From: a virus
Direction: 5' to 3' (one strand)
Length of the DNA stretch: 41,149 nucleotides
IMG/VR virus record: IMGVR_UViG_3300022562_000348
Coordinates: 1-41,149 of that record
Made by a program: the position numbers and the translations under genes. Below, in pieces: positions 30,139 to 40,144 of the stretch; position 1 is the stretch's first letter, and every line of letters begins with the position of its first letter. The notes below the pieces were generated by a model. The model was not told the DNA's origin and searched no databases. It saw only the letters and a program-made list of their open reading frames with translations.

Positions 30139-32040
30139 TTATGCTACCCACTTGAATGTAGCAACACCAGAACCGTTAGCGGTTGTGATTTGCTGGAATG
30201 CCATACGTTGAGAAGCAACTAGCACTCGGCGCTGTTCCTGAACAATGTAGTCAGATTCAACGCGTAGGCCAACTTGTTCACCACGCATGAAGTTAGACTT
30301 GTTAAGACAAATCGCACCGTACTTGGTTGCTGCCTTGGCTTCGAATTCGCCGGAAACAACAACTGGAGTACCTGCAACATAACCGATTTGACCGGTTAGT
30401 AGAGTAGCGCGGTCGCTACCAACTTTGTCAACAGTCTGGAAGGTAGTATCGTCTAGTAGATCGTAATAGATCTCAGTAGATACAACGTAGATCAGATCGG
30501 AAGGATCTAGACCCCAAACACCTAGCTTACGACGAAGTGCGGTTAGAGTAGCTACGGAAGCTGCTGTGGTAACAGAAGCGGTAGTACCAGTAGCATCACC
30601 AATCTTCGCAACACCGTTAAGAGGATCGGAACCAGCACCTTGGCCACGTAGGTGAGCCTGATCGATAGCACGAGCCATACGACGAACCACAGCGTCACGA
30701 ATAATCGGCGCTAGAGCTAGTACGGAGTCTTCATCTTCTTCGTTGGTGATGAATTCCTTGGTTGCTAGCTTGTAGGTTTGTAGTAGGACGTCGTTTAGCT
30801 GGTGAACTTGCGCAGTACCTGAAGAAGCGGTAGTACCGTAATCAGTTGCTGCAACCCAGTTTGCCACGCCTGCTTCAGGGTTGATTGGGAAACGCATGGT
30901 AGGAGTAGGCATTGTAATGGTCTTGAATAGCGGCGCTACTACTAGACGACGACGAATGTCTGCCTGCATGTTGTTGGAAACGGTGTGTTCCCACTCGCCA
31001 GCACCTGCACCACCATAGTGAGGACCAGCTTTTTCGATAAGAGACTTACCATACTTGGTGTCTTCTACTCGACGGCTAAGTGTCTTAGCAAGGATAATCG
31101 CGGATTCCTTTTCCTGAATGGAAATAGGGTCCTGATTACCATTATTGCGATCGCCAAAGCCAGCCTTAGATTTTAGAAGAGCTTCGATCTCTGCACGCTG
31201 TTCAGCGATCTGCTCTGCAAGGCCTTCGGTTAGTCCTTTGACTTGTGCGTCAAGACCATCCTTCATTGCCTTCTCAAGACGGGCTTCAACTTCGCCCACT
31301 AGCTTCTCAGCGCTAGATTGAAGTACTTGAATATCTGCTGCCTTGCGAGTTTCAGCTTCCTTAGCTGCTTTCTCGGCTTGCAGACGTTCTTCTTCTTTTT
31401 GATCTAGAGCGCTCTTAACCAGTGCGGCTAGTTCTTCTTTAGTCATATTAAATTCATCCTGGGCATTACCATTTGCTCCGTCATCCTTTTTAGTTGAGTC
31501 GTCAGATGGTAAAAATTGTTTCTTAAAGGCTTGGAACTCTTCAGTCGTTCCAAAGCACTTGGAAACACTGAATAGAGATTCTTGGTTAGCCGGAACCGAG
31601 ACCACAGAAATCTCGTGTAGTTCGATATCTTTTACAACGAAGACGTCAGCGTCTTTGTCGTAGGACATGTCTTTGATTCGTCCTCCAATAGAGAAAGCGC
31701 GTAGCACTCCTGCTTTAACGAACTCATATACGTCTGTAGCAGACTTCATGATTTGGGCTTTTACTTTTAGGCCCTTTTCGTCAACAGCAAGCTCGGTTAC
31801 TCTCCCTACTGGGCGAGAGTGATCGTGGAAAGCCAGAACGATAGGATTCTTCTGATAGTTATTCAGACCCCCGTTCTTAGTCCAGGCCTCAACCTGAATC
31901 ACGTCTCCATGACGATCCTCGTCCTTAGTGTTCGCGTAACCTTCGATGGTGATATAATCTTCACCATCTTCTGCTTTAGTGGCTTTTTCTACTGTGAATA
32001 ACGAATCGATTCGAAAGTCTTTTAGACCCTCAATTTTCAT
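30139..32040 (-). CDS. Prohead protease-scaffold-major capsid fusion
   Basis: A 633-residue polyprotein. Residues 1-160 form an S78 (HK97 prohead) protease with FHDHSRPVG (H72 or H74), FSIGG (S117) and LHEISVVSVPAN (E143), matching the expected His, Ser and Glu. Residues 165-290 are a charged coiled coil, like the scaffolding delta domain. Residues 291-633 form an HK97-fold major capsid protein (TPTMRFPINPEAGVANWV and DPLNGVAKIG). An internal ATG at 31446 (M199), with AGGA upstream, could give a protease-free scaffold-capsid product of 435 residues. The fusion places one protease on each capsid subunit unless the internal start is used. A GC-rich hairpin follows. Confidence 0.9.
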   Translation of the reverse strand: MKIEGLKDFRIDSLFTVEKATKAEDGEDYITIEGYANTKDEDRHGDVIQVEAWTKNGGLNNYQKNPIVLAFHDHSRPVGRVTELAVDEKGLKVKAQIMKSATDVYEFVKAGVLRAFSIGGRIKDMSYDKDADVFVVKDIELHEISVVSVPANQESLFSVSKCFGTTEEFQAFKKQFLPSDDSTKKDDGANGNAQDEFNMTKEELAALVKSALDQKEEERLQAEKAAKEAETRKAADIQVLQSSAEKLVGEVEARLEKAMKDGLDAQVKGLTEGLAEQIAEQRAEIEALLKSKAGFGDRNNGNQDPISIQEKESAIILAKTLSRRVEDTKYGKSLIEKAGPHYGGAGAGEWEHTVSNNMQADIRRRLVVAPLFKTITMPTPTMRFPINPEAGVANWVAATDYGTTASSGTAQVHQLNDVLLQTYKLATKEFITNEEDEDSVLALAPIIRDAVVRRMARAIDQAHLRGQGAGSDPLNGVAKIGDATGTTASVTTAASVATLTALRRKLGVWGLDPSDLIYVVSTEIYYDLLDDTTFQTVDKVGSDRATLLTGQIGYVAGTPVVVSGEFEAKAATKYGAICLNKSNFMRGEQVGLRVESDYIVQEQRRVLVASQRMAFQQITTANGSGVATFKWVA

Positions 32041-33235
32041 CAGTTACTCCAATTGTTTTCGTAGGAGGCTTACCTCCAGAAGATGGATCAGCTGCGCTAC
32101 CAGCAATGTTAGCTGGGATTCGAAGGTCATCATGACCCGCCTTAGGCTCAAGGCGCATAGCGCTACGAGCTTCGTTCGGTGCCATAACTCCGCCGTTAAC
32201 CAGAGTAGTAAAGTAAGCGGAAGCTTCCTTCATTTCCGGTTGTAGTGCAGATACATTAGGTACTACAGGTTCAATGTCAAACCCAAAGAAACCTTCAACT
32301 GCTGACGCCACCATGGTTACCACTGGGTAGATAGTTTCAAGGTAGAATAGTCTTAAGTTAGGACTAATGTTTGCGTTGTTGCCACCCCTAAGCAGAATGT
32401 AGGGAACACCTAGAGCTAGCAGTATCGCTTCTTCTTTCTTGTTGATAGAGTTTTCAAAGTCCAATTCAGAGAAACTCTTATCGATTAAATTCTGTACTTC
32501 AAGTCCACCATCTAGAATAAGAGGACGTCGACCACCCGCGGTAGGGCTGTATCGTTGCGTCCATGAAGCTAGTAGGCGTTCTTTTGTCTTCTCACCAAGA
32601 GGGTTCTTAGATGTGATAACTAGTCCAGGAATAGTTCCATGCTGGAAGAATTTGTTCTGGAAGTCCTGCATCTTCTTAAGAGTATCGATGCTCTGCAGAG
32701 CAGCGCTTAGGCGGCTCTGGCCACGATAAATGCTCTCTGCAGAGTTATCAGATATGTGGATAATTTCCTCCGGCAAGAACTTAGTTCTACCAGCATACAT
32801 GTAGTGATCGACAAAGGTCTTCTCATCTGTCATGATCTGCACTGACTGGGCTGGTAGCTGATATAGGTACACCCCGTCATAGTAGATAAAGATATTACCG
32901 TCTAGGAAGAAATCCACAAAACAGTTTCGCCAAAATTTATTGACGCTCTGGTAAGGATTTGGTCTAACGTTAAGAAGCTCTAGCAGCTTCTTTTGTTTCA
33001 TTTTTGTAGTACCTACGATGATTCTATCTTTCACATCGTAAGTAAAGGAGGCACATCCGTTGACGCACCTATCGACACCATTTCGCACTGCTTCCAGTTT
33101 CTTGTAAGCGTCGGTGTAGTATGCTACATGTTCGGTAGTGCCAATATCGTGACCTTGTTCGTCACGAATAATCACCTGTGCGGGGTTGTCCTTATTAGTC
33201 AGAGCTCCCCACAGGCGGCTCATATATCCTGCCAT
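32030..33235 (-). CDS. Portal protein
   Basis: An HK97-family portal protein that forms the dodecameric DNA gate at one capsid vertex. Family features are an early PNPYQSVNKFWRNCFVDFFL helix, GNIFIYYDGVYLYQLPAQSV, HISDNSAESIYRGQSRLSAA and ILLALGVPYILLRGGNNANIS in the stem region. I prefer the ATG at 33235 (MAGYMSRLW), which leaves 401 residues. The longer frame to 33304 adds 23 basic residues with no ribosome-binding site and lies within the HNH gene. The gene still overlaps the HNH gene by about 41 nt and the capsid fusion gene by 11 nt. The true start is uncertain. Confidence 0.9.
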   Translation of the reverse strand: MAGYMSRLWGALTNKDNPAQVIIRDEQGHDIGTTEHVAYYTDAYKKLEAVRNGVDRCVNGCASFTYDVKDRIIVGTTKMKQKKLLELLNVRPNPYQSVNKFWRNCFVDFFLDGNIFIYYDGVYLYQLPAQSVQIMTDEKTFVDHYMYAGRTKFLPEEIIHISDNSAESIYRGQSRLSAALQSIDTLKKMQDFQNKFFQHGTIPGLVITSKNPLGEKTKERLLASWTQRYSPTAGGRRPLILDGGLEVQNLIDKSFSELDFENSINKKEEAILLALGVPYILLRGGNNANISPNLRLFYLETIYPVVTMVASAVEGFFGFDIEPVVPNVSALQPEMKEASAYFTTLVNGGVMAPNEARSAMRLEPKAGHDDLRIPANIAGSAADPSSGGKPPTKTIGVTDEN

Positions 33236-33608
33236 ATTTATCTGCCTGCTTCGCAATCCATCGTGCCTGTTTCGCGGCAGTAGTTGGAGCGGGTTTCGGG
33301 CCATACACGCTATGTAGTTTTACATGATGCTGATTGCACAAGGTGACAACCATGTCATATAACTCCACTTTGTGAGCGTCTATAAACTCGTCCCTTACTG
33401 CAAGCACATCCTCGTCAGTTTCTAACGGATAGCCTTTAGATTTTGCCCACTTTTCAAATAGTATAGTGAGCGAATGGAAGTGGTGCAGTTCTAAATCTTC
33501 TCCAGCACCACATACAACGCATTCATCAGCCTTTTCGTAGGCTTTCTTTGCACGGTCACGAACCCATTTCACTGGGTCTCGCTTCCTAGCTCCTGTGTTT
33601 TTTGCCAT
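33195..33608 (-). CDS. HNH endonuclease
   Basis: A 137-residue HNH nuclease with a zinc-binding pair (C30 and C33, in ECVVCG), the LELHHFH core (H42, H43) and LCNQHHVKLHS (C91, H94, H95, H99). HNH proteins next to the large terminase are known to work with it when concatemers are cut during packaging, as HK97 gp74 does. Here it lies between large terminase and portal, behind its own promoter. The ATG has no Shine-Dalgarno and starts only a few bases after the predicted transcription start, so translation is probably leaderless. Confidence 0.88.
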   Translation of the reverse strand: MAKNTGARKRDPVKWVRDRAKKAYEKADECVVCGAGEDLELHHFHSLTILFEKWAKSKGYPLETDEDVLAVRDEFIDAHKVELYDMVVTLCNQHHVKLHSVYGPKPAPTTAAKQARWIAKQADKYGRIYEPPVGSSD

Positions 33609-33675: not shown

Positions 33676-33695
33676 GAGACGCGATTAAACGTCTC
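33676..33695 (-). terminator. Weak inverted repeat at end of large terminase gene
   Basis: GAGACG (33676-33681) and CGTCTC (33690-33695) form a 6-bp stem around the terminase stop codon. There is no clear T-tract, so this is at most a weak terminator or processing site before the promoter at 33618-33656. Confidence 0.3.
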
Positions 33696-35007
33696 CAGTT
33701 CCCTTAGTCCACGTATACATGGAGTACCGCATAGCATCGGCCATGTGGCTATAGATATCGTGCTTAGGCTTTTCCTTAACAGCATTACCGATAGTTTCCG
33801 CCCACGAATACTGATCTAGCATCGCAAGTGTATTTCCACACTTACTAGCGACAAACAACTTGCCTTGCTCCACAATTGACTGGCAGAATGAAATTCCGTC
33901 CAGTATGGATTTGTTAGCAGGTGTACAGGTTAGGTCGTGTTCATATGCTAAGTCGTACTGAGTCTGAGCAGCCGCGGAGTCGATGTAGATCATCTCAACA
34001 TCATATCCACAGTCAGCTAAGTACGAGTTTAGTTCTTTGATTCGTTCTGCGTGTCGAGCGGTGTTGGCTTCCGCTTGCTGGTACTCGTCGAGGATATAAT
34101 AGCACTCAGTACTAGGGGAGAAACCAATAACGATGTAAGCTGTAGGGTCCCTAAAGCCAGGGTCCAGCCCAGCAAATACCTCCAAGTCGTTAGGCAGTTC
34201 ATAGTCATCGTCGAAGACGTTGACGTCCGCGTCAAAGTGGTAGATCTGGCCTTGGAAGGATACGAATGAAGCTTCATACTCTTGCTTGAATTCCGCGTTG
34301 GACATTGAGCGACGAGCTTCCATAACGTCCGCCTCACCCATCCTATTGTTCTCACGATAGTCAGAGTGAACAGAACACCATTCAGGAAAGTCTTCGCCGA
34401 ATCCCCGGTTGTAATAGTGGGAGAACCAGTTGTTTCGACCACGAGGGGTTGAAATAAACACGGCTTTCGAACCAGGACGATCTAGTGTAGGACGCAGCGC
34501 AACCTGGAAAGCTAGGTCGCCTTCAGGGTGTAGCGCAGCCTCATCGAATAAGATCATGTTATAGGAGCGTCCAACGCAAGCATCTACTTGGTTGACAGAA
34601 CCCATACGAATAGTTGATCCATTAATAAGTTCAATAACTCGATCTTTAGCGTTATCTTTACGCACCTCTACATCGTATTTGCGAAGTAGGTCTCGTTGCT
34701 GTTTGAACGAGATTTCAGATAGGTTATAGTTAGGAGACATAATCAGTACGTTATGGTCAGGTATAAGTGACATAAGGTGAGCGATTACGTTCGCTATATA
34801 GGTTTTTCCGGTACGTCGTGATAACGCACCAACTACGAATCGATACTTAGGATTATTAAGGGCGTTGATTACAGCTATCTGAGGCCGTAACGGCTCAACT
34901 TCCTCCATTGCTAAGTACTTTTCGACAGGTAGCTTAATAAATCGTTCGTCGATGTCCCTCTGCTCTATAAACTCAGAAGGAACATCGCTGCGACTGATAG
35001 TAAGCAT
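33685..35007 (-). CDS. terL: Terminase large subunit
   Basis: A 440-residue packaging motor protein. The ATPase domain has Walker A SRRTGKTY (63-70), Walker B MILFDEAA (151-158) and coupling motif FISTPRG (184-190). The RNase H-like nuclease domain starts at FAGLDPGFRDP (D282), with IYIDSAA (D343) and DAMRYSMY near the C-terminus supplying further metal ligands. It pumps DNA into the prohead and cuts concatemers. It is separated from the small terminase by one unusual gene (35039-36070). The family is secure; the packaging mode (cos or headful) cannot be told here. Confidence 0.95.
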   Translation of the reverse strand: MLTISRSDVPSEFIEQRDIDERFIKLPVEKYLAMEEVEPLRPQIAVINALNNPKYRFVVGALSRRTGKTYIANVIAHLMSLIPDHNVLIMSPNYNLSEISFKQQRDLLRKYDVEVRKDNAKDRVIELINGSTIRMGSVNQVDACVGRSYNMILFDEAALHPEGDLAFQVALRPTLDRPGSKAVFISTPRGRNNWFSHYYNRGFGEDFPEWCSVHSDYRENNRMGEADVMEARRSMSNAEFKQEYEASFVSFQGQIYHFDADVNVFDDDYELPNDLEVFAGLDPGFRDPTAYIVIGFSPSTECYYILDEYQQAEANTARHAERIKELNSYLADCGYDVEMIYIDSAAAQTQYDLAYEHDLTCTPANKSILDGISFCQSIVEQGKLFVASKCGNTLAMLDQYSWAETIGNAVKEKPKHDIYSHMADAMRYSMYTWTKGTGDV

Positions 35008-35038: not shown

Positions 35039-36070
35039 CTAAATATTTAAACATAGCTCTTTCCACGAACCATACTGTTCGAGGTTATGACCATACCACA
35101 CAGTCTCTCCAGCAATGCCCCAACGCCAATCCCAGTCGTACGTAGGTTGTAGCAACATCACGCGACGGCCGCGAAGCAGGGCAATATGCACTATAGAAGT
35201 GTCAACAGAGATAACAGTGTGGCATTTGTCGATCAAGTCGATAGTATCCTGCCAAGATTTGATCGCAGGGTTATCGCCGAACTGTAGGCTCAAACTACCC
35301 ATCTCCAACATAGCACGGCGCAGTGATGGGTATGAGCGGTTAATATCGTTCTGATGCTTTGGGTTACCTTTCCAGCACACGCCTATTTCATCCCCGAGAG
35401 GAATATCTTGCACAGGGCAAGGACGAGGACCAAAAAGCATAGGTAAAGACCCCATTGGTATATAGTACTCGGCATCAGAATCAGTGGAAGCAGTAATAGT
35501 GTTAGGAAATAGTCCATGCAGTTCAGCAGGCACTAAGTAGTCATACGAAGGTATACACTCTAAGTAACGAGAGAACATAAAGTCGTCACCAACCCCCTGT
35601 TCAGCTATAACCATTACTTTGCCAGTGCCTTCCCAACGTTTACGTCCACCGAGGTTTGGGAGCGCGACAGGTTTGTTCTTAGTGAAGCGAGTCTCGTACT
35701 GAGAAAAGGCAAACTCCCATCCAGCACCATCAGCAGAAGCAATCTTCATGTATTGCAAAGCACGGTTGAACTTAGCCTCAGAATAGCCAAGATCTACAGC
35801 GCGATTATACCATTCAATCGCTTCATCGGGGCGTCCGATTAGTTGCTTATACAAACCTATGTTGCTATGAGCCATGTCGAACGTAGGATCTGCTCTCACG
35901 CTTCGCATAGTATAGTCATAAGCCAGCTCAGGACGCCCCAATGCAATGCATGCAGCACCTGCGTCTAGTAGAGCATACTTGTCATCCGGAAAACGGGCAA
36001 GATGCTTGTCAAACTCGCGCAGGGCGTGGTGGTATTTACCTTCTCTAAAGTACTTTTGTGCTCGATTCAT
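35039..36070 (-). CDS. TPR protein with glycosyltransferase-like domain
   Basis: A 343-residue protein. Residues 1-110 hold about three tetratricopeptide repeats (KYFREGKYHHALREFDKHLA, then PELAYDYTMRSVRADPTF and PDEAIEWYNRAVDLGYSEAK). Residues 130-343 resemble the GT-B glycosyltransferase region of bacterial TPR proteins related to the GT41 (OGT/SPINDLY) or GT9 families: VCWKGNPKHQND-NRS, LIDKCHTVISVDTSIVHIAL and YDWDWRWG, which mark the nucleotide-sugar side. It lies between the small and large terminase genes and overlaps the former by 4 nt (ATGA). A glycosylation role for phage or host proteins is possible but unproven. The domain reading is fairly confident; acceptor and sugar are unknown. 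Confidence 0.7.
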   Translation of the reverse strand: MNRAQKYFREGKYHHALREFDKHLARFPDDKYALLDAGAACIALGRPELAYDYTMRSVRADPTFDMAHSNIGLYKQLIGRPDEAIEWYNRAVDLGYSEAKFNRALQYMKIASADGAGWEFAFSQYETRFTKNKPVALPNLGGRKRWEGTGKVMVIAEQGVGDDFMFSRYLECIPSYDYLVPAELHGLFPNTITASTDSDAEYYIPMGSLPMLFGPRPCPVQDIPLGDEIGVCWKGNPKHQNDINRSYPSLRRAMLEMGSLSLQFGDNPAIKSWQDTIDLIDKCHTVISVDTSIVHIALLRGRRVMLLQPTYDWDWRWGIAGETVWYGHNLEQYGSWKELCLNI

Positions 36071-36543
36071 TTTGTCGCTAAGATTTTGCGTACAAGGTCG
36101 CCGTAGTTACCTTGTGGTCCCTCATTAATTTGAATATTGGTCTGAGTCTTAATGTTATCAGACTTAGCCCGTGCCTCTTCTAGTTTCGCCATCGCAGCAA
36201 GCTCATCCATACGCATCTTATGAGCCATTTGTAGTAGGTCAGCAATGTCTTTACCAGATCCAAGTTCCGCTTCGTCCAACTCTGCTAACTTAGAGGCGAT
36301 AATAGTGTCCATTGCCGCTGCGATGTTATTTCTGTTTCTATAGCCTGTATCTAGGTACACCGTATCTATATACCGCTTCACCTCGGCCTGACTTAGCACA
36401 CGAGCGACTACGTCGCGAGCAATGCCAGTGGCCTGAATTACAGCGTCAATATTGCCGCACTTCAAATAGGAATTAGCGATAAGAAGATTCTCCGGTGCGA
36501 TTTCAACTACCTCAGCGGGAGAGGCACGAACAACGCTATTCAT
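36067..36543 (-). CDS. terS: Terminase small subunit
   Basis: A 158-residue protein with an N-terminal helix-turn-helix-like region (AVIQATGIARDVVARVLSQ), a helical middle and a C-terminal part (NIQINEGPQGNYGDLVRKIL) common in small terminases. It recognises viral DNA and regulates the large subunit. I chose the ATG at 36543 because AAGGAG lies 7 nt upstream. An in-frame ATG at 36585, 14 codons further, lies exactly at the predicted transcription start of the promoter at 36592-36631, so a longer leaderless form (172 residues) may also exist. An ATG at 36603 lies upstream of the predicted start and is unlikely. Confidence 0.78.
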   Translation of the reverse strand: MNSVVRASPAEVVEIAPENLLIANSYLKCGNIDAVIQATGIARDVVARVLSQAEVKRYIDTVYLDTGYRNRNNIAAAMDTIIASKLAELDEAELGSGKDIADLLQMAHKMRMDELAAMAKLEEARAKSDNIKTQTNIQINEGPQGNYGDLVRKILATK

Positions 36544-36591
36544 AGAATACTCCTTTTGCAGCACCAAATAATTTTGGTACGTCATAGTCGA

Positions 36592-36631
36592 AGTATAACA
36601 CATTCACTACCCAAAATCAATAAAATTTTTT
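36592..36631 (-). promoter_or_regulatory. Leftward late-operon promoter
   Basis: On the minus strand AAAAAATTTT (36631-36622) is followed by TTGATT (36620-36615), a 17-nt spacer and TATACT (36597-36592). It drives the small terminase operon. Six nt after the -10 box an ATG (36585) occurs. It is divergent from the promoter at 36639-36679, with the two A/T-tracts almost touching. Confidence 0.75.
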
Positions 36632-36685: not shown

Positions 36686-36712
36686 ATGTTCAATGGAGGA
36701 GCAATCAAATGA
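36686..36712 (+). CDS. Possible leaderless leader peptide
   Basis: A putative 8-codon frame, MFNGGAIK followed by TGA. Its ATG lies exactly at the predicted transcription start, its body contains the GGAGG ribosome-binding site of the next gene, and its stop overlaps that gene's start (ATGA). It could couple leaderless initiation to re-initiation at 36709. It is very short and may be chance. Confidence 0.3.
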   Translation: MFNGGAIK

Positions 36713-36972
36713 AACTTAAAGTTGGTGATAAAGTTGTAACGCACAGCGGACGCAAGGGCGTCGTTGTTGAGGAAAATAAGGGCGAGATCGTATATCGGTT
36801 CATTGTGGAGCTGGAAGCCGTACGTCTTGTAAATGGAAAGAAGAAAATTATCCCGAATGAGAAGGTAAAAGAGTCATTTACCGAGGATGGTAGGTACATG
36901 GCTAGCGGTCCTAGCATGGCCGACATTGCAAGAATTATTGAAGACGAAGTGGAAACGCAGGAGCCGTTCTAA
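36709..36972 (+). CDS. KOW/SH3-like single-repeat protein
   Basis: An 87-residue protein whose first 80 residues form one copy of the repeat found four times in the next gene: LKVGDKVVTHSGRKGVVVEE, a beta-rich middle, then TEDGRYM...DIARII. The opening KVGDxVxxxxGxxGxV is typical of KOW/SH3-like beta barrels that bind nucleic acids or proteins. GGAGG 9 nt upstream of the ATG fits. It overlaps the next gene by one base (TAATG). The function is unknown; similar small barrels are common in phage early or accessory regions. Confidence 0.7.
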   Translation: MKLKVGDKVVTHSGRKGVVVEENKGEIVYRFIVELEAVRLVNGKKKIIPNEKVKESFTEDGRYMASGPSMADIARIIEDEVETQEPF

Positions 36973-37949
36973 TGGATATGCTTAAGTATAAAGCAGGCGA
37001 TCAAGTTGTGCTGCGCAACGGAGTAGTTGCAACTCTTACAAGTGTGTCCCCGGGAGCCGGCCTATACCCGGTCCGAGCTTCTCTGCCGAAGAAGGCTGCC
37101 GATTCCGAAGGAGTGCACACCATTCTCCTAACAAAGGAGGGTAAGTACTGGCATGATGATCTTACTCCCAACAAGTACGATGTTGTTGGGGAAGCACCAC
37201 AGGTACCTGTCTACGAAATCGGAGATGAGGTGCAGTGCATCAACAATGAAATTGGTGTAGTAGATCGTTTTCGTGAGGCCGAAGACTATCCTATGATGGT
37301 AAAGTTCAAGGATGTCAATGGCCAGTACACTGAACGCTCCTATACACGTACTGGGAGGTATATCAACGATAAAGAGGAAAGTCCTCGAGACATTGTTGGT
37401 AAGGCAATTAAGCCCTCTTCACCATCGGTACCATACAAAGTGGGGGATCGAGTACGTCTTCGCAACGGTGACGAAGGGACTGTTGTAACAATCCGCAACG
37501 GGGACAACTATGCCTTCCCGGTGGTTGTGAACAGTGGCGATGACCAGTACTCCTACACGGTAGATGGCTTCTATTTTAGCAGTGGTACGTCTGCGCTAGA
37601 CATTATCAGTGTAATCGACGATCCTAAGTCGCTGACTGCGAAGATCGGAGACCTGGTTATCCTTCGCAATGGACGCCGGGGTCGCGTTACTCGGATGCGC
37701 AATGATGCCATGTACCCATTTCTGGTGAAGTTTCTGGACGATGAGTCCATCGAAACATACACAGGACGTCTGAAATACATGTCAGATGGGGAAACTCACC
37801 ACATGGACATCATTGCGGTCGAGCCTCTTGTGGAAGATCAGGAAGATGACTTCGATGCGGATGATTGGTTCGAAGTTGAGGATGAAACGACCCCAGAAAT
37901 CGACAATATGCCTGATTATGAAGAAAATGCAGTAATTGACCCATTTTAA
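36972..37949 (+). CDS. Tandem four-repeat KOW/SH3-like protein
   Basis: A 325-residue protein with four tandem copies of one domain of about 60-68 residues (about 6-73, 81-143, 155-214 and 224-283). Each begins K/EIGDxVxLRNGxxGxV, continues YPFxVxF and ends YTxxGxYxxD...DII. A strongly acidic tail (286-325, EDQEDDFDADDWFEVEDE) follows. Together with the preceding gene, five copies lie in a row, so the array probably grew by duplication. The acidic tail hints at DNA mimicry or protein binding. No catalytic residues are seen and no known function is assigned. Confidence 0.72.
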   Translation: MDMLKYKAGDQVVLRNGVVATLTSVSPGAGLYPVRASLPKKAADSEGVHTILLTKEGKYWHDDLTPNKYDVVGEAPQVPVYEIGDEVQCINNEIGVVDRFREAEDYPMMVKFKDVNGQYTERSYTRTGRYINDKEESPRDIVGKAIKPSSPSVPYKVGDRVRLRNGDEGTVVTIRNGDNYAFPVVVNSGDDQYSYTVDGFYFSSGTSALDIISVIDDPKSLTAKIGDLVILRNGRRGRVTRMRNDAMYPFLVKFLDDESIETYTGRLKYMSDGETHHMDIIAVEPLVEDQEDDFDADDWFEVEDETTPEIDNMPDYEENAVIDPF

Positions 37950-37990: not shown

Positions 37991-38044
37991 GTTGGTTTTT
38001 GCACTTTTTCTACCACAGCATTTGTGCCTATTATTCAGCCTCCG

Positions 38045-38092
38045 CTACCTTGGCACCGTGTAGGTTTTGGTTGTTTTTACCAAAGTTTTACG
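38045..38092 (+). repeat. 48-bp direct repeat, copy 1
   Basis: It begins CTACCTTGGCACCGT, then AGGTTTT, and ends ACCAAAGTTTTACG. It is 63 bp from copy 2, with 38 of 48 positions identical. The first 24 and last 14 positions are conserved while the central 10 differ, which suggests two protein-binding blocks. Confidence 0.75.
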
Positions 38093-38107
38093 TTATATCA
38101 ATCTCTA

Positions 38108-38155
38108 CTACCTCGGCACCGTAAAGGTTTTCATGAAATTAACCAAAGTTTTACG
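38108..38155 (+). repeat. 48-bp direct repeat, copy 2
   Basis: It begins CTACCTCGGCACCGT, then AAAGGTTTT, and ends ACCAAAGTTTTACG (14 of 14 identical to copy 1). It has the same length and spacing between its two conserved blocks as copy 1. It lies upstream of the palindrome at 38206-38225. Confidence 0.75.
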
Positions 38156-38182
38156 CGAAGGTGGGCACAGAGAGCCTGGCGT

Positions 38183-38225
38183 TTGTCAAGGTCTGATAAC
38201 CGCCCTATGTGATTTAAATCACATA
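38183..38225 (+). promoter_or_regulatory. Candidate promoter overlapped by a CRP-like palindrome
   Basis: TTGTCA (38183-38188) and TATGTG (38206-38211) are 17 nt apart. The -10 is the left end of a perfect 20-bp palindrome (TATGTGATTTAAATCACATA, 38206-38225) whose core fits the CRP half-sites TGTGA-N6-TCACA exactly. A regulator bound there would block the promoter, or might act on the promoter at 38281-38309. Confidence 0.5.
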
Positions 38226-38280
38226 TCCAGTCTTTTTGTGCAACTGGGGACGGGCGGTCCGATTTTTCCGACGAACGGTC

Positions 38281-38309
38281 TTGCATCTGGAGGCAGGCGA
38301 GCGTATTAT
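38281..38309 (+). promoter_or_regulatory. Sigma70-like promoter, leaderless type
   Basis: TTGCAT (38281-38286), 17 nt and TATTAT (38304-38309). The ATG of the next gene (38316) lies 6 nt beyond, at the predicted +1. It closely resembles the promoter at 39895-39922. Confidence 0.65.
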
Positions 38310-38315
38310 AAACAC

Positions 38316-38570
38316 ATGGACAACGCACTACGGATGACTGAGATGACCAACTATCACGAACTGCTGATGCAAGCGATTTATACTACTTGCCTGGACATGC
38401 ACGTGACTGCTGGTGCTAGCATGCGAAACGACTATGCGCGTCGCATGCAACCGGAATTCGCTAATGACGTTTCGTTTGACTACGCGCTGGAGCGCACGCA
38501 TGTTGGGCACGCTGGCGGCATGAAAAAAGGCCCGACGTTCCCGAAAATTCCGGTTGCGCTCTGCTACTGA
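38316..38570 (+). CDS. Small hypothetical protein, first of the right module
   Basis: An 84-residue protein beginning MDNALRMTEMTNYHELL and ending PKIPVALCY. It has a probable helical N-terminal half and a basic middle (MRNDYARRM), with no membrane segment. No Shine-Dalgarno is present and the ATG sits at the predicted transcription start, so translation is likely leaderless. The in-frame frame upstream (from 38067) reads through repeats and is not credible. The codon use (CTG, GCG) differs from the left part of the window. The function is unknown. Confidence 0.6.
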   Translation: MDNALRMTEMTNYHELLMQAIYTTCLDMHVTAGASMRNDYARRMQPEFANDVSFDYALERTHVGHAGGMKKGPTFPKIPVALCY

Positions 38571-38582
38571 TTACTGTATTAT
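38554..38582 (+). promoter_or_regulatory. Sigma70-like promoter
   Basis: TTGCGC (38554-38559), 17 nt and TATTAT (38577-38582). It lies at the 3' end of the preceding gene and drives the gene at 38609, which, unlike the leaderless genes, has AAAGGAG upstream. Confidence 0.6.
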
Positions 38583-38608
38583 CTAACTTCGTTCAAAGGA
38601 GAAACACC

Positions 38609-38962
38609 ATGACTGCCAAGGCTACCAACTACACTGCCGAGCAAACCACCGCGATGGTTGCTGCTTACTCTGCTGCTGAAACTGAAGCGGATCGCGCTGC
38701 TGTCGTGGCTGCACAGGCCAAACTGCTGGGCAAATCTGAAGCGTCGATCCGCGCCAAGCTGTCGCGGGAGGGCGTGTATATCAAGAAGGAGGCGAAGCGG
38801 AAGGATGGCACGCCTGTCCAGAAGAAAGACGAGTTTGCCACTGCCATCGGCAAGATCCTTCGCCTGTCGGAAGGCGATACCGATTCGCTGGCGAAAGCCA
38901 ATCGCAAGGCGCTGGAAAGCATCTTCGATGCACTGGCGAACAGCAAGCCGATCAGCGAATAA
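38609..38962 (+). CDS. Probable small DNA-binding protein
   Basis: A 117-residue protein, Ala-, Lys- and Glu-rich, beginning TAKATNYTAEQTTAMVAAY. The segment about 35-60 (AKLLGKSEASIRAKLSREGVYIK) has the look of a helix-turn-helix and matches a type of small phage protein I associate with DNA or RNA binding. The C-terminus is helical (SLAKANRKALESIFDALANS). AAAGGAG at 38595-38601 fits the ATG. It is followed by a promoter with a large inverted repeat. A regulatory role is plausible but unproven. Confidence 0.6.
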   Translation: MTAKATNYTAEQTTAMVAAYSAAETEADRAAVVAAQAKLLGKSEASIRAKLSREGVYIKKEAKRKDGTPVQKKDEFATAIGKILRLSEGDTDSLAKANRKALESIFDALANSKPISE

Positions 38963-38966
38963 AGGC

Positions 38967-39008
38967 TTGACTTCTGGTACGCTTCCGCTACAATAGAAGC
39001 GTACCAGA
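38967..39008 (+). promoter_or_regulatory. Promoter nested in a 13-bp inverted repeat
   Basis: TTGACT (38967-38972), 16 nt and TACAAT (38989-38994). The -10 box lies in the 10-nt loop of a perfect inverted repeat, TCTGGTACGCTTC (38973-38985) and GAAGCGTACCAGA (38996-39008). It could be a dimeric operator that represses the promoter, or a hairpin acting as an upstream terminator. The gene at 39031 follows. Confidence 0.6.
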
Positions 39009-39030
39009 TAACTTTTCTTCGGAGCCGATC

Positions 39031-39330
39031 ATGAGCCAGACCATCGCCCAACGTAAAACCCTTCGCCGCTACGCCTCGCACAATGGCACGAAAATCGTGA
39101 CCGAATATGCGAGCGGCAAGAAAGACGTGCAACGCGCTACGCTGGCGCAGCGTATCGGCTACCTTATCGGGAGGATCTTTCGCAATGCTGAACATGCAAA
39201 CATGGGTTCTGTTGCTACTTCTCACGACGCTTGGAATAAGCGTTGCGGAATGGCTGACGATTCGCTCCGCGCAGATTGCAGCGGAATCACGGTTGAATTC
39301 CTCGACTGCGAACACATTGAACTGAACTGA
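39031..39330 (+). CDS. Small hypothetical protein
   Basis: A 99-residue protein, basic at its N-terminus (QRKTLRRYASHNGTKI), with a hydrophobic short segment (RIGYLIGRIF). The second half (HANMGSVATSHDAWNKRCGM ... EFLDCEHIELN) is read in a frame that overlaps another possible gene (39185-39325). CGGAG (39020-39024) lies upstream of the ATG. The promoter with an inverted repeat at 38967-39008 drives it. No recognised family. Confidence 0.5.
   Translation: MSQTIAQRKTLRRYASHNGTKIVTEYASGKKDVQRATLAQRIGYLIGRIFRNAEHANMGSVATSHDAWNKRCGMADDSLRADCSGITVEFLDCEHIELN
39185..39325 (+). CDS. Possible embedded small membrane protein
   Basis: A 46-residue frame within the preceding gene in another frame. It begins MLNMQTWVLLLLLTTLGISV, has one clear membrane segment and ends NSSTANTLN. 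GGGAGG (39169-39174) lies 10 nt before the ATG, a better site than that of the host gene. Both frames stop within 5 nt. It may be a real overlapping gene, for example a membrane peptide, or a chance frame. Confidence 0.45.
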   Translation: MLNMQTWVLLLLLTTLGISVAEWLTIRSAQIAAESRLNSSTANTLN

Positions 39331-39344
39331 GGAGGCGCCGCACC

Positions 39345-39701
39345 ATGTCGCACATTGTTATGGATGCAGAAGACGTGAGGCGGCGCGCTCGCGCTGCTAT
39401 CGAATTCATTGAACTGGCCCAACTGCAACACTTCGCCAACCTACTGCGCGAGGTAGCAGCGGAGCGCGTTGGCTGGCCTTGGGCACGGCGTGCGCGTGGC
39501 TACGATGAAGCATTCAGGCTTTGCACGGTTGATGGCAACATGGAATACACCATGCGCGCTATTGTGCGGGAAGGGCTTTGGCGTAAGGATCTTATCCGGG
39601 CAGAAAGGTTGCTTATGCTTGGGGAATATGGCGATCCGGTCACTGTCTCGGCCGAAGACATTTACATTCTGGATGATGAATTTATTGAACTAGATCAATG
39701 A
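39345..39701 (+). CDS. Hypothetical protein
   Basis: A 118-residue protein with a basic, helical N-terminal half (DAEDVRRRARAAIEFIELAQ, then REVAAERVGWPWARRARGYD) and an acidic C-terminus (VSAEDIYILDDEFIELDQ). GGAGG (39331-39335) 9 nt upstream of the ATG supports the start. It lies directly behind the overlapping pair. No known motif and no membrane segment. It is followed by a hairpin-rich non-coding stretch. Confidence 0.55.
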   Translation: MSHIVMDAEDVRRRARAAIEFIELAQLQHFANLLREVAAERVGWPWARRARGYDEAFRLCTVDGNMEYTMRAIVREGLWRKDLIRAERLLMLGEYGDPVTVSAEDIYILDDEFIELDQ

Positions 39702-39702
39702 C

Positions 39703-39801
39703 TTAGCCTGGCCCAAACCCCTGTATAATCAAGGACTTACAGGGGTCCGGGCGGGGTGCACCATTTTGGTGCACCCGCGCCGCGCGGGCACGCTCTCCCA
39801 C
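39703..39801 (-). ncRNA. Candidate small leftward RNA or tiny ORF
   Basis: A transcript from the minus-strand promoter at 39808-39835 would start near 39801 and could fold into GGGTGCACC and CCCCTGTA...TACAGGGG hairpins; the latter is followed by GTTTGG, a poor terminator. A GTG at 39801 lies exactly at the predicted start and opens a 32-codon frame ending at 39703. Which, if either, is real cannot be decided from sequence alone. Confidence 0.3.
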
Positions 39802-39818
39802 AATTACATTATACAGGG
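39718..39818. repeat. Hairpin-dense region with inverted TATAAT repeats
   Basis: CCCCTGTA (39718-39725) pairs with TACAGGGG (39738-39745). GGGTGCACC (39754-39762) pairs with GGTGCACCC (39768-39776) around a 5-nt loop; GGTGCACC, itself a palindrome, thus occurs twice. CCCTGTATAAT (39719-39729) recurs inverted as ATTATACAGGG (39808-39818), so two -10-like boxes face each other. It may be an sRNA gene, a repressor site cluster or an origin-like element. Confidence 0.6.
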
Positions 39819-39835
39819 CTGGGCGCAAATTGCAA
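39808..39835 (-). promoter_or_regulatory. Leftward promoter in hairpin region
   Basis: On the minus strand, TTGCAA (39835-39830), 16 nt and TATAAT (39813-39808). Its transcript would converge with any from the TATAAT at 39724-39729 on the plus strand, which has only a poor -35 (TTAGCC). Confidence 0.5.
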
Positions 39836-39894
39836 CTACCGTTCGTCGGAAGCAGGTCTGTTACAATTTCTTACATTTCCTGGCGCAAAAAGGC

Positions 39895-39922
39895 TTGCAT
39901 TCGGCTGTGAAACGCCTATAAT
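39895..39922 (+). promoter_or_regulatory. Sigma70-like promoter, leaderless type
   Basis: TTGCAT (39895-39900), 16 nt and TATAAT (39917-39922), then AAGCAC and ATG at 39929. It corresponds closely to the promoter at 38281-38309, which is followed by AAACAC and ATG. Confidence 0.72.
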
Positions 39923-39928
39923 AAGCAC

Positions 39929-40144
39929 ATGGACACGAACAAAGCACTCTCTTGGATCTCGGCGGCAGGCGGCATGCTTGGCGCGGCGCTATGCTCTAGC
40001 GGGCATATGGCAATCGGATACCCGTTTTTCTTTGTGGGTTCTGTTGCTGGCGTCGTAGCACTGCGGCATAATATGCCAATGCTTCTGCAATTTCTGTTTT
40101 TTACTGCATGCAATGCCTACGGCATTCTGAATTTTACGCTCTGA
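39929..40144 (+). CDS. Small membrane protein
   Basis: A 71-residue, mostly hydrophobic protein with two or three membrane segments (about 8-25, AAGGMLGAALCSSG; about 30-45, YPFFFVGSVAGVVAL; about 50-68, MLLQFLFFTACNAYGI). It lacks a signal peptide or lipobox. No ribosome-binding site precedes the ATG, which lies at the predicted transcription start. A role in the host membrane early in infection (superinfection exclusion or transport) is possible, without specific evidence. The stop codon overlaps the next gene's ribosome-binding site. Confidence 0.65.
   Translation: MDTNKALSWISAAGGMLGAALCSSGHMAIGYPFFFVGSVAGVVALRHNMPMLLQFLFFTACNAYGILNFTL

What the first reader, a model, noticed from the sequence alone, without database searches (positions are those of the whole stretch)
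35039..36070. TPR-glycosyltransferase-like gene between small and large terminase
TerS and TerL are usually adjacent, but here a TPR protein with a GT41/GT9-like C-terminal domain (VISVDTSIVHIAL, YDWDWRWG) lies between them in the same operon. It may glycosylate a virion or host protein, or have lost catalysis and serve as a packaging scaffold.
Basis: partly seen in the sequence, partly recalled or inferred. Interest (0 to 1): 0.7.

Follow-up and report, generated by a model that had tools for sequence, protein, structure and literature searches.

The report
Conserved sugar-adding enzyme between phage terminases
In a large group of uncultured T5-like phages the two genes of the DNA-packaging motor are split by a gene for a protein-binding sugar-transferring enzyme, often followed by a methyl-transferring enzyme, which probably decorates virus-particle proteins with sugar; no cultured T5-like phage examined carries it.

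Summary
A 343-aa gene (36070..35039, minus strand) lies between TerS and TerL of a partial T5-like phage. It has TPR helices and a compact two-lobe glycosyltransferase domain; the AlphaFold2 model on 104 relatives has pLDDT 94 and pTM 0.90. The glycosyltransferase half is GT9/heptosyltransferase-like by sequence: its only credible PDB sequence matches are WaaC and WaaF, over the donor-binding D-T-x-x-H loop, and the putative catalytic Asp (D162) is invariant in all 104.

It is not a one-off. The same gene occupies the same TerS-TerL junction in 48 IMG/VR contigs, mostly with overlapping frames; dN/dS is about 0.07-0.25 in close pairs, and an FkbM-type methyltransferase follows it in 20. It was not found in cultured T5-like phages. 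In unrelated phages its relatives sit beside tail, RCC1-repeat, capsid, 2OG-Fe(II) oxygenase and sulfotransferase genes.

Best reading: a late-expressed protein glycosyltransferase, like bacterial FlmG, whose TPR captures a virion protein. A catalytically dead packaging scaffold is unlikely. Acceptor and sugar are unknown. I found no description of the cassette in the papers searched, but TPR glycosyltransferases themselves are a known kind.

The parts
35039..36070 (-). TPR-glycosyltransferase gene, 343 aa
   Evidence: ORF; TPR and GT9-like matches; model pLDDT 94.4; same gene between TerS and TerL in 48 contigs
35684..36070 (-). TPR superhelix, residues 1-129 (eight helices)
   Evidence: Pfam TPR; helices 2-129 in the model
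35396..35653 (-). first (N) lobe of the GT domain, about residues 140-225, minimal Rossmann-like lobe
   Evidence: model
35042..35395 (-). second (C) lobe of the GT domain, about residues 226-343
   Evidence: model; profile match to WaaC/WaaF
35585..35602 (-). motif EQGVGD, residues 157-162; D162 is the putative catalytic base
   Evidence: E157, G159, G161, D162 invariant in 104 sequences; opposite WaaF D13 in a weak alignment
35333..35374 (-). motif WKGNPKHQNDINRS, residues 233-246
   Evidence: G235, N241, R245 invariant in 30 T5-like relatives
35186..35206 (-). donor-binding loop VDTSIVH, residues 289-295
   Evidence: aligned with WaaC D261-H266; D290, S292 and H295 invariant, T291 nearly so, in the T5-like set
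36067..36603 (-). small terminase subunit (start more likely 36543)
   Evidence: phrog_3802 E 5.5e-35; ribosome-binding site; aligned with T5-like TerS
33685..35007 (-). large terminase subunit
   Evidence: Terminase_6N; 46-47% to Demerecviridae TerL
33195..33608 (-). HNH-type gene downstream of TerL
   Evidence: phrog_3497 E 6e-33; weak HNH endonuclease PHROG hits
32030..33304 (-). portal protein
   Evidence: PF04860 E 1.6e-48
30139..32040 (-). fused prohead protease and major capsid protein
   Evidence: PF04586 residues 21-159 and PF05065 residues 354-616

Best explanation
The gene encodes an active, soluble protein glycosyltransferase made late in infection with the packaging and head proteins. 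Its N-terminal TPR superhelix captures a protein acceptor, most likely a virion protein such as capsid, decoration or tail. Its C-terminal GT9/heptosyltransferase-like domain transfers a sugar from a host nucleotide-sugar, with D162 as base and the R245 and D290-H295 region holding the donor. In many relatives an FkbM-type methyltransferase encoded next to it then methylates the product. Shown here: gene, fold, motif conservation, conserved cassette, purifying selection in relatives. Inferred: catalysis, donor, acceptor, and that the acceptor is a virion protein.
For: High-confidence model with TPR helices and two Rossmann-like lobes. GT9-like sequence with the WaaC/WaaF donor loop and putative base kept. 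The window keeps 23 of 27 GT columns that are invariant in its 29 T5-like relatives, but only 4 of 7 TPR columns. Conserved TerS-GT-(MT)-TerL cassette with overlapping frames in 48 contigs. dN/dS about 0.07-0.25. FkbM methyltransferase partner and natural TPR-GT-FkbM fusions. In unrelated phages, neighbours are RCC1, tail, capsid, 2OG-Fe(II) oxygenase and sulfotransferase genes. Precedents: FlmG, whose TPR binds flagellin and whose GT-B domain modifies it (PMC7591256); TibC, a WaaC-like protein heptosyltransferase (PMC4358343).
Against: No acceptor, donor or glycan has been shown. The window protein itself is below the Pfam GT9 cut-off (14.6 of 22 bits) and has D284H, G298L, F315W and N332Q at otherwise invariant sites. 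Its first lobe is short. The nearest genes are packaging genes, not tail genes. Nucleotide-sugar genes are rare in these records, so the donor must come from the host.
Confidence: 0.6

Rival explanations
1. It is active but modifies the host surface: as a GT9 relative it adds a sugar to LPS or another envelope glycan, blocking superinfection or late adsorption to debris.
For: GT9 heptosyltransferases act on LPS, and the sequence link is to WaaC/WaaF. Other cargo at this junction in relatives includes GT2 and aldolase-type genes.
Against: The TPR arm is the usual sign of a protein acceptor; the gene is in the late packaging operon, translationally coupled to TerS; relatives elsewhere sit beside virion and protein-modifying genes.
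Confidence: 0.17
2. It is a packaging or assembly factor: the TPR binds TerS, TerL or portal, and the GT domain is a structural remnant or modifies the motor itself.
For: Fixed position and translational coupling between TerS and TerL in 48 contigs; TPRs are protein-binding; one GT per genome in the seven positive records searched.
Against: Sister phages with directly overlapping TerS and TerL do without it; catalytic-type motifs are the best-conserved part; FkbM methyltransferase partner; relatives far from terminases in other phages.
Confidence: 0.1
3. It is cargo without a fixed link to virions: the TerS-TerL junction is a permissive insertion hotspot and this gene serves some other intracellular role, for example glycosylating a host protein or phage DNA.
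For: In related phages the junction holds other cargo: GT2 plus metallophosphoesterase, aldolase, 2OG-Fe(II) oxygenase, GIY-YIG-like, lysis-like and membrane ORFs.
Against: GT presence is clustered on the TerL tree (minimum 3 changes), so it is largely inherited rather than shuffled. A DNA acceptor is unlikely for a TPR enzyme expressed late; base-modification genes were not searched for.
Confidence: 0.12

Closest known systems
FlmG, Caulobacter flagellin O-glycosyltransferase (PMC7591256)
   Same: N-terminal TPR and C-terminal GT-B-type domain; single soluble enzyme; in FlmG the TPR alone binds the acceptor protein
   Different: FlmG is bacterial, 596 aa, and transfers pseudaminic acid to flagellins; direct sequence relation to FlmG was not tested; acceptor and sugar here unknown
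GT9 heptosyltransferases WaaC and WaaF
   Same: D-T-x-x-H donor loop and GxGD base motif; PF01075 matches in 35 of 104 relatives
   Different: no TPR in WaaC/WaaF; they act on LPS; the window protein is below the GT9 cut-off and its first lobe is much shorter
TibC/BAHT autotransporter heptosyltransferases (PMC4358343)
   Same: WaaC-like GT-B domain that modifies protein, with a catalytic Asp
   Different: TibC is an iron-binding dodecamer without a TPR and modifies autotransporters
OGT and SPINDLY (GT41)
   Same: TPR superhelix joined to a GT-B domain; best Foldseek PDB hits
   Different: the match is mostly the TPR (full-length rmsd 12-14 A); the GT-half sequence profile does not find them
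T5-like phages (Demerecviridae) My1, 234P1, PG07
   Same: TerS, TerL and portal in the same order, with protease and capsid after them
   Different: TerS and TerL overlap (My1, 234P1) or are separated by one 39-aa ORF (PG07); no glycosyltransferase between them; protease and capsid are separate genes

Membership tests
GT9 (PF01075) | score over the curated Pfam cut-off | tested here: not met
   14.6 bits against 22 for the window protein; 35 of 104 relatives match at E<=0.01, best 2e-7. I therefore call it GT9-like, not GT9.
GT9 (PF01075) | donor loop D-T-x-x-x-H (WaaC D261-H266) | tested here: met
   VDTSIVH 289-295 aligned to it
GT9 (PF01075) | N-terminal catalytic Asp in a G-x-G-D motif (WaaF D13) | tested here: inconclusive
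   D162 invariant in 104 sequences and opposite WaaF D13, but only in a sub-threshold second alignment; no structural superposition was possible
GT-B fold | two Rossmann-like lobes facing each other | tested here: inconclusive
   AlphaFold2 pLDDT 94.4, pTM 0.90, two alpha/beta lobes after the TPR; similar to phage models annotated GT9 (TMq 0.56) and TPR protein (TMq 0.75-0.76); GT half not searched on its own against the PDB
GT41 (OGT, SPINDLY) | TPR plus GT-B architecture | tested here: met
GT41 (OGT, SPINDLY) | GT41-type catalytic domain sequence | tested here: inconclusive
   GT-half profile finds WaaC/WaaF and no OGT at E<=1; absence of a match is not proof
FlmG-type protein glycosyltransferase | TPR binds the acceptor protein and the GT domain glycosylates it | not testable with these tools
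   needs binding and activity assays
TibC/BAHT | iron-binding dodecamer acting on autotransporters | not tested
   no assembly or metal-site analysis done
T5-like phage (Demerecviridae relatives) | T5-like TerS, TerL and gene order TerS-TerL-portal-protease-capsid | tested here: met
   TerL 46% to Demerecviridae, TerS 32-37%, same order but for the insert and the protease-capsid fusion

The most novel reading that the evidence does not exclude
A clade of uncultured T5-like phages carries its own protein-glycosylation system, a TPR glycosyltransferase with or without an FkbM methyl-capping enzyme, kept by selection inside the packaging operon and acting on the virion or even on TerS, TerL or portal, so that particle assembly and glycan decoration are coupled.
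Probability: 0.4. Interest if true: 0.75.

Novelty: new variant of a known kind. Interest (0 to 1): 0.6.

Why it matters
Virion glycosylation is known in few phages (own knowledge). A conserved, compact enzyme at a fixed site in many T5-like genomes, present in one set of relatives and absent in their sisters, makes acceptor, sugar and benefit (evasion, adsorption, capsid stability) testable by comparison. It also shows that the TerS-TerL junction, which in cultured T5-like phages is closed by overlapping frames, is open to cargo.

Tried and rejected
Single-sequence scans of viral contigs with the window protein or its TerL found almost nothing; alignments were needed. The first AlphaFold run with 7 sequences gave a poor GT half (pLDDT 63); 104 sequences solved it. 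Donor-synthesis genes: NTP_transferase in 0 of 12 T5-like records and GDP_Man_Dehyd in 2 of 12, so the donor is probably the host's. GT41 membership was considered and not adopted. Placement of the window on the TerL tree is unsure because of its long branch. T5 itself was not in the collection under the accession tried. Papers on phage TPR glycosyltransferases or on this locus: none found; preprints and most subscription papers are not held.

Full report
What is there. The window is a 41-kb virus record, a piece of an uncultured T5-like siphovirus. Its late genes run on the minus strand: TerS (36603 or more likely 36543..36067), the gene in question (36070..35039, 343 aa), TerL (35007..33685), an HNH-type gene, portal, and a fused protease-capsid gene. 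The gene overlaps the TerS stop by 4 nt and ends 31 nt before TerL. TerL is 46% identical to Demerecviridae TerL. A second contig carries the same virus at 99.94% over 11.5 kb.

Is the insert unusual? In Pectobacterium phage My1 and Vibrio phage 234P1 the TerS and TerL frames overlap; in Vibrio phage PG07 only a 39-aa annotated ORF, overlapping TerL, lies between. The phage collection holds 1,039 records with a related TerL, yet tblastn with the window protein or with another T5-like member (L082) finds only one and three phage records with any similar protein, none of them identified as T5-like. In 80 environmental T5-like TerL loci the TerS-TerL distance, where both genes are on the contig, ranges from -1 nt to 4.5 kb, so this junction is an insertion hotspot. 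Besides the TPR-glycosyltransferase it holds, in other phages, a metallophosphoesterase plus GT2, a class II aldolase, a 2OG-Fe(II) oxygenase, a GIY-YIG-like ORF, a GDSL-like protein, or lysis-like and membrane ORFs (GIY-YIG and lysis/membrane by eye).

How conserved is it? An alignment-based scan and neighbourhood analysis found TerS-[TPR-GT]-TerL in 48 distinct contigs, the window included (52 loci less four duplicate contigs; some of the rest are near copies, and in 7 partial ones the TerS side is cut off), about 32 clusters at 80% identity. Frames mostly overlap by a few to some tens of nt. In 20 contigs an FkbM methyltransferase (PF05050, E 2.4e-23 for L014) lies between the GT and TerL. 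Seven of eight searched T5-like records (up to 112 kb) carry exactly one copy; the eighth, from the group with overlapping TerS and TerL, has none. Close pairs give dN/dS of about 0.07-0.25. On the TerL tree GT presence needs at least 3 changes and methyltransferase presence 9, so the GT looks largely inherited while the methyltransferase comes and goes; the window's own branch is long and its place unsure.

Fold and chemistry. With 104 relatives AlphaFold2 gives pLDDT 94.4 and pTM 0.90: eight TPR helices (2-129) followed by two Rossmann-like lobes, the first one minimal. Foldseek's best PDB hits are SPINDLY and OGT, mostly through the TPR; the best viral models are phage TPR and GT9-annotated proteins. 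By sequence the GT half is GT9-like: its profile finds WaaC and WaaF at E 0.008-0.0097, aligned over WaaC D261-H266, with WaaF D13 opposite D162 in a weak second alignment, and PF01075 is the only glycosyltransferase family among the 25 most-matched in 104 relatives. E157, G159, G161 and D162 are invariant in 104 sequences. The window keeps 23 of 27 GT columns that are invariant in 29 T5-like relatives, including D162, R245, D290 and H295, but only 4 of 7 such TPR columns. That pattern fits an active enzyme whose acceptor-binding arm has diverged better than a dead scaffold.

What it probably acts on. In unrelated phages relatives of the enzyme sit near RCC1-repeat proteins (40 of 106 non-T5 loci by a motif count, near copies not removed), tail and tail-fibre proteins, capsid proteins (SU10_MCP, Gp23), 2OG-Fe(II) oxygenases, sulfotransferases and GT25. 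In L002 a TPR-GT-FkbM fusion lies between portal-like and scaffold/capsid-like genes (those names are by inspection). With the TPR arm this points to a virion protein acceptor. FlmG gives the working model: its TPR alone binds flagellin and its GT-B domain glycosylates it (PMC7591256). TibC shows that a WaaC-like domain can heptosylate protein (PMC4358343). The donor is probably the host's, since nucleotide-sugar genes are rare in these records.

Verdict. Observation confirmed; interpretation partly supported. Gene, overall fold and conserved cassette are solid; catalysis is likely; acceptor, sugar and benefit are open. I rate it a new variant of a known kind: TPR glycosyltransferases are known in bacteria and appear singly in phages, but a selected TerS-GT(-methyltransferase)-TerL cassette in T5-like phages was not found described in the library searched.

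Noticed in passing
window 30139-32040 (-): Prohead protease and major capsid protein are one 633-aa ORF here and in many related environmental contigs, but two genes in My1, 234P1 and PG07.
   Followed up: partly
L060, L061, L066, L073 (TerS-TerL gap): Another branch carries a metallophosphoesterase plus a GT2-type glycosyltransferase and other ORFs at the same TerS-TerL junction.
   Followed up: partly
L017, L020, L026, L036 and others (TerS-TerL gap): A third branch has 2-4.5 kb of small secreted, membrane and lysis-like ORFs between TerS and TerL.
   Followed up: partly
L252:5956-8275: Two tandem TPR-glycosyltransferase copies between TerS and TerL.
   Followed up: no
L265:1470-4285: TerS and the TPR-glycosyltransferase run straight into portal, without TerL between.
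   Followed up: no
L002:4395-6611, L097:5743-8415: TPR-glycosyltransferase and FkbM methyltransferase fused in one protein; in L002 it sits between portal-like and scaffold/capsid-like genes.
   Followed up: partly
L007:3723-10919 (Marine virus AG-345-E08): A distant relative lies in a cluster of RCC1-repeat proteins, 2OG-Fe(II) oxygenase-like, glycosyltransferase-like and sulfotransferase-like genes, by inspection.
   Followed up: partly
window 38001-40000: GC rises to 0.53 against 0.44-0.48 elsewhere, with only short ORFs.
   Followed up: no
window 36709-37949 (+): Two ORFs (87 and 325 aa) on the opposite strand with repeated small GDxVxxxxGxxG units by eye; only weak YajC, MSSS and Tudor-like hits.
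   Followed up: no
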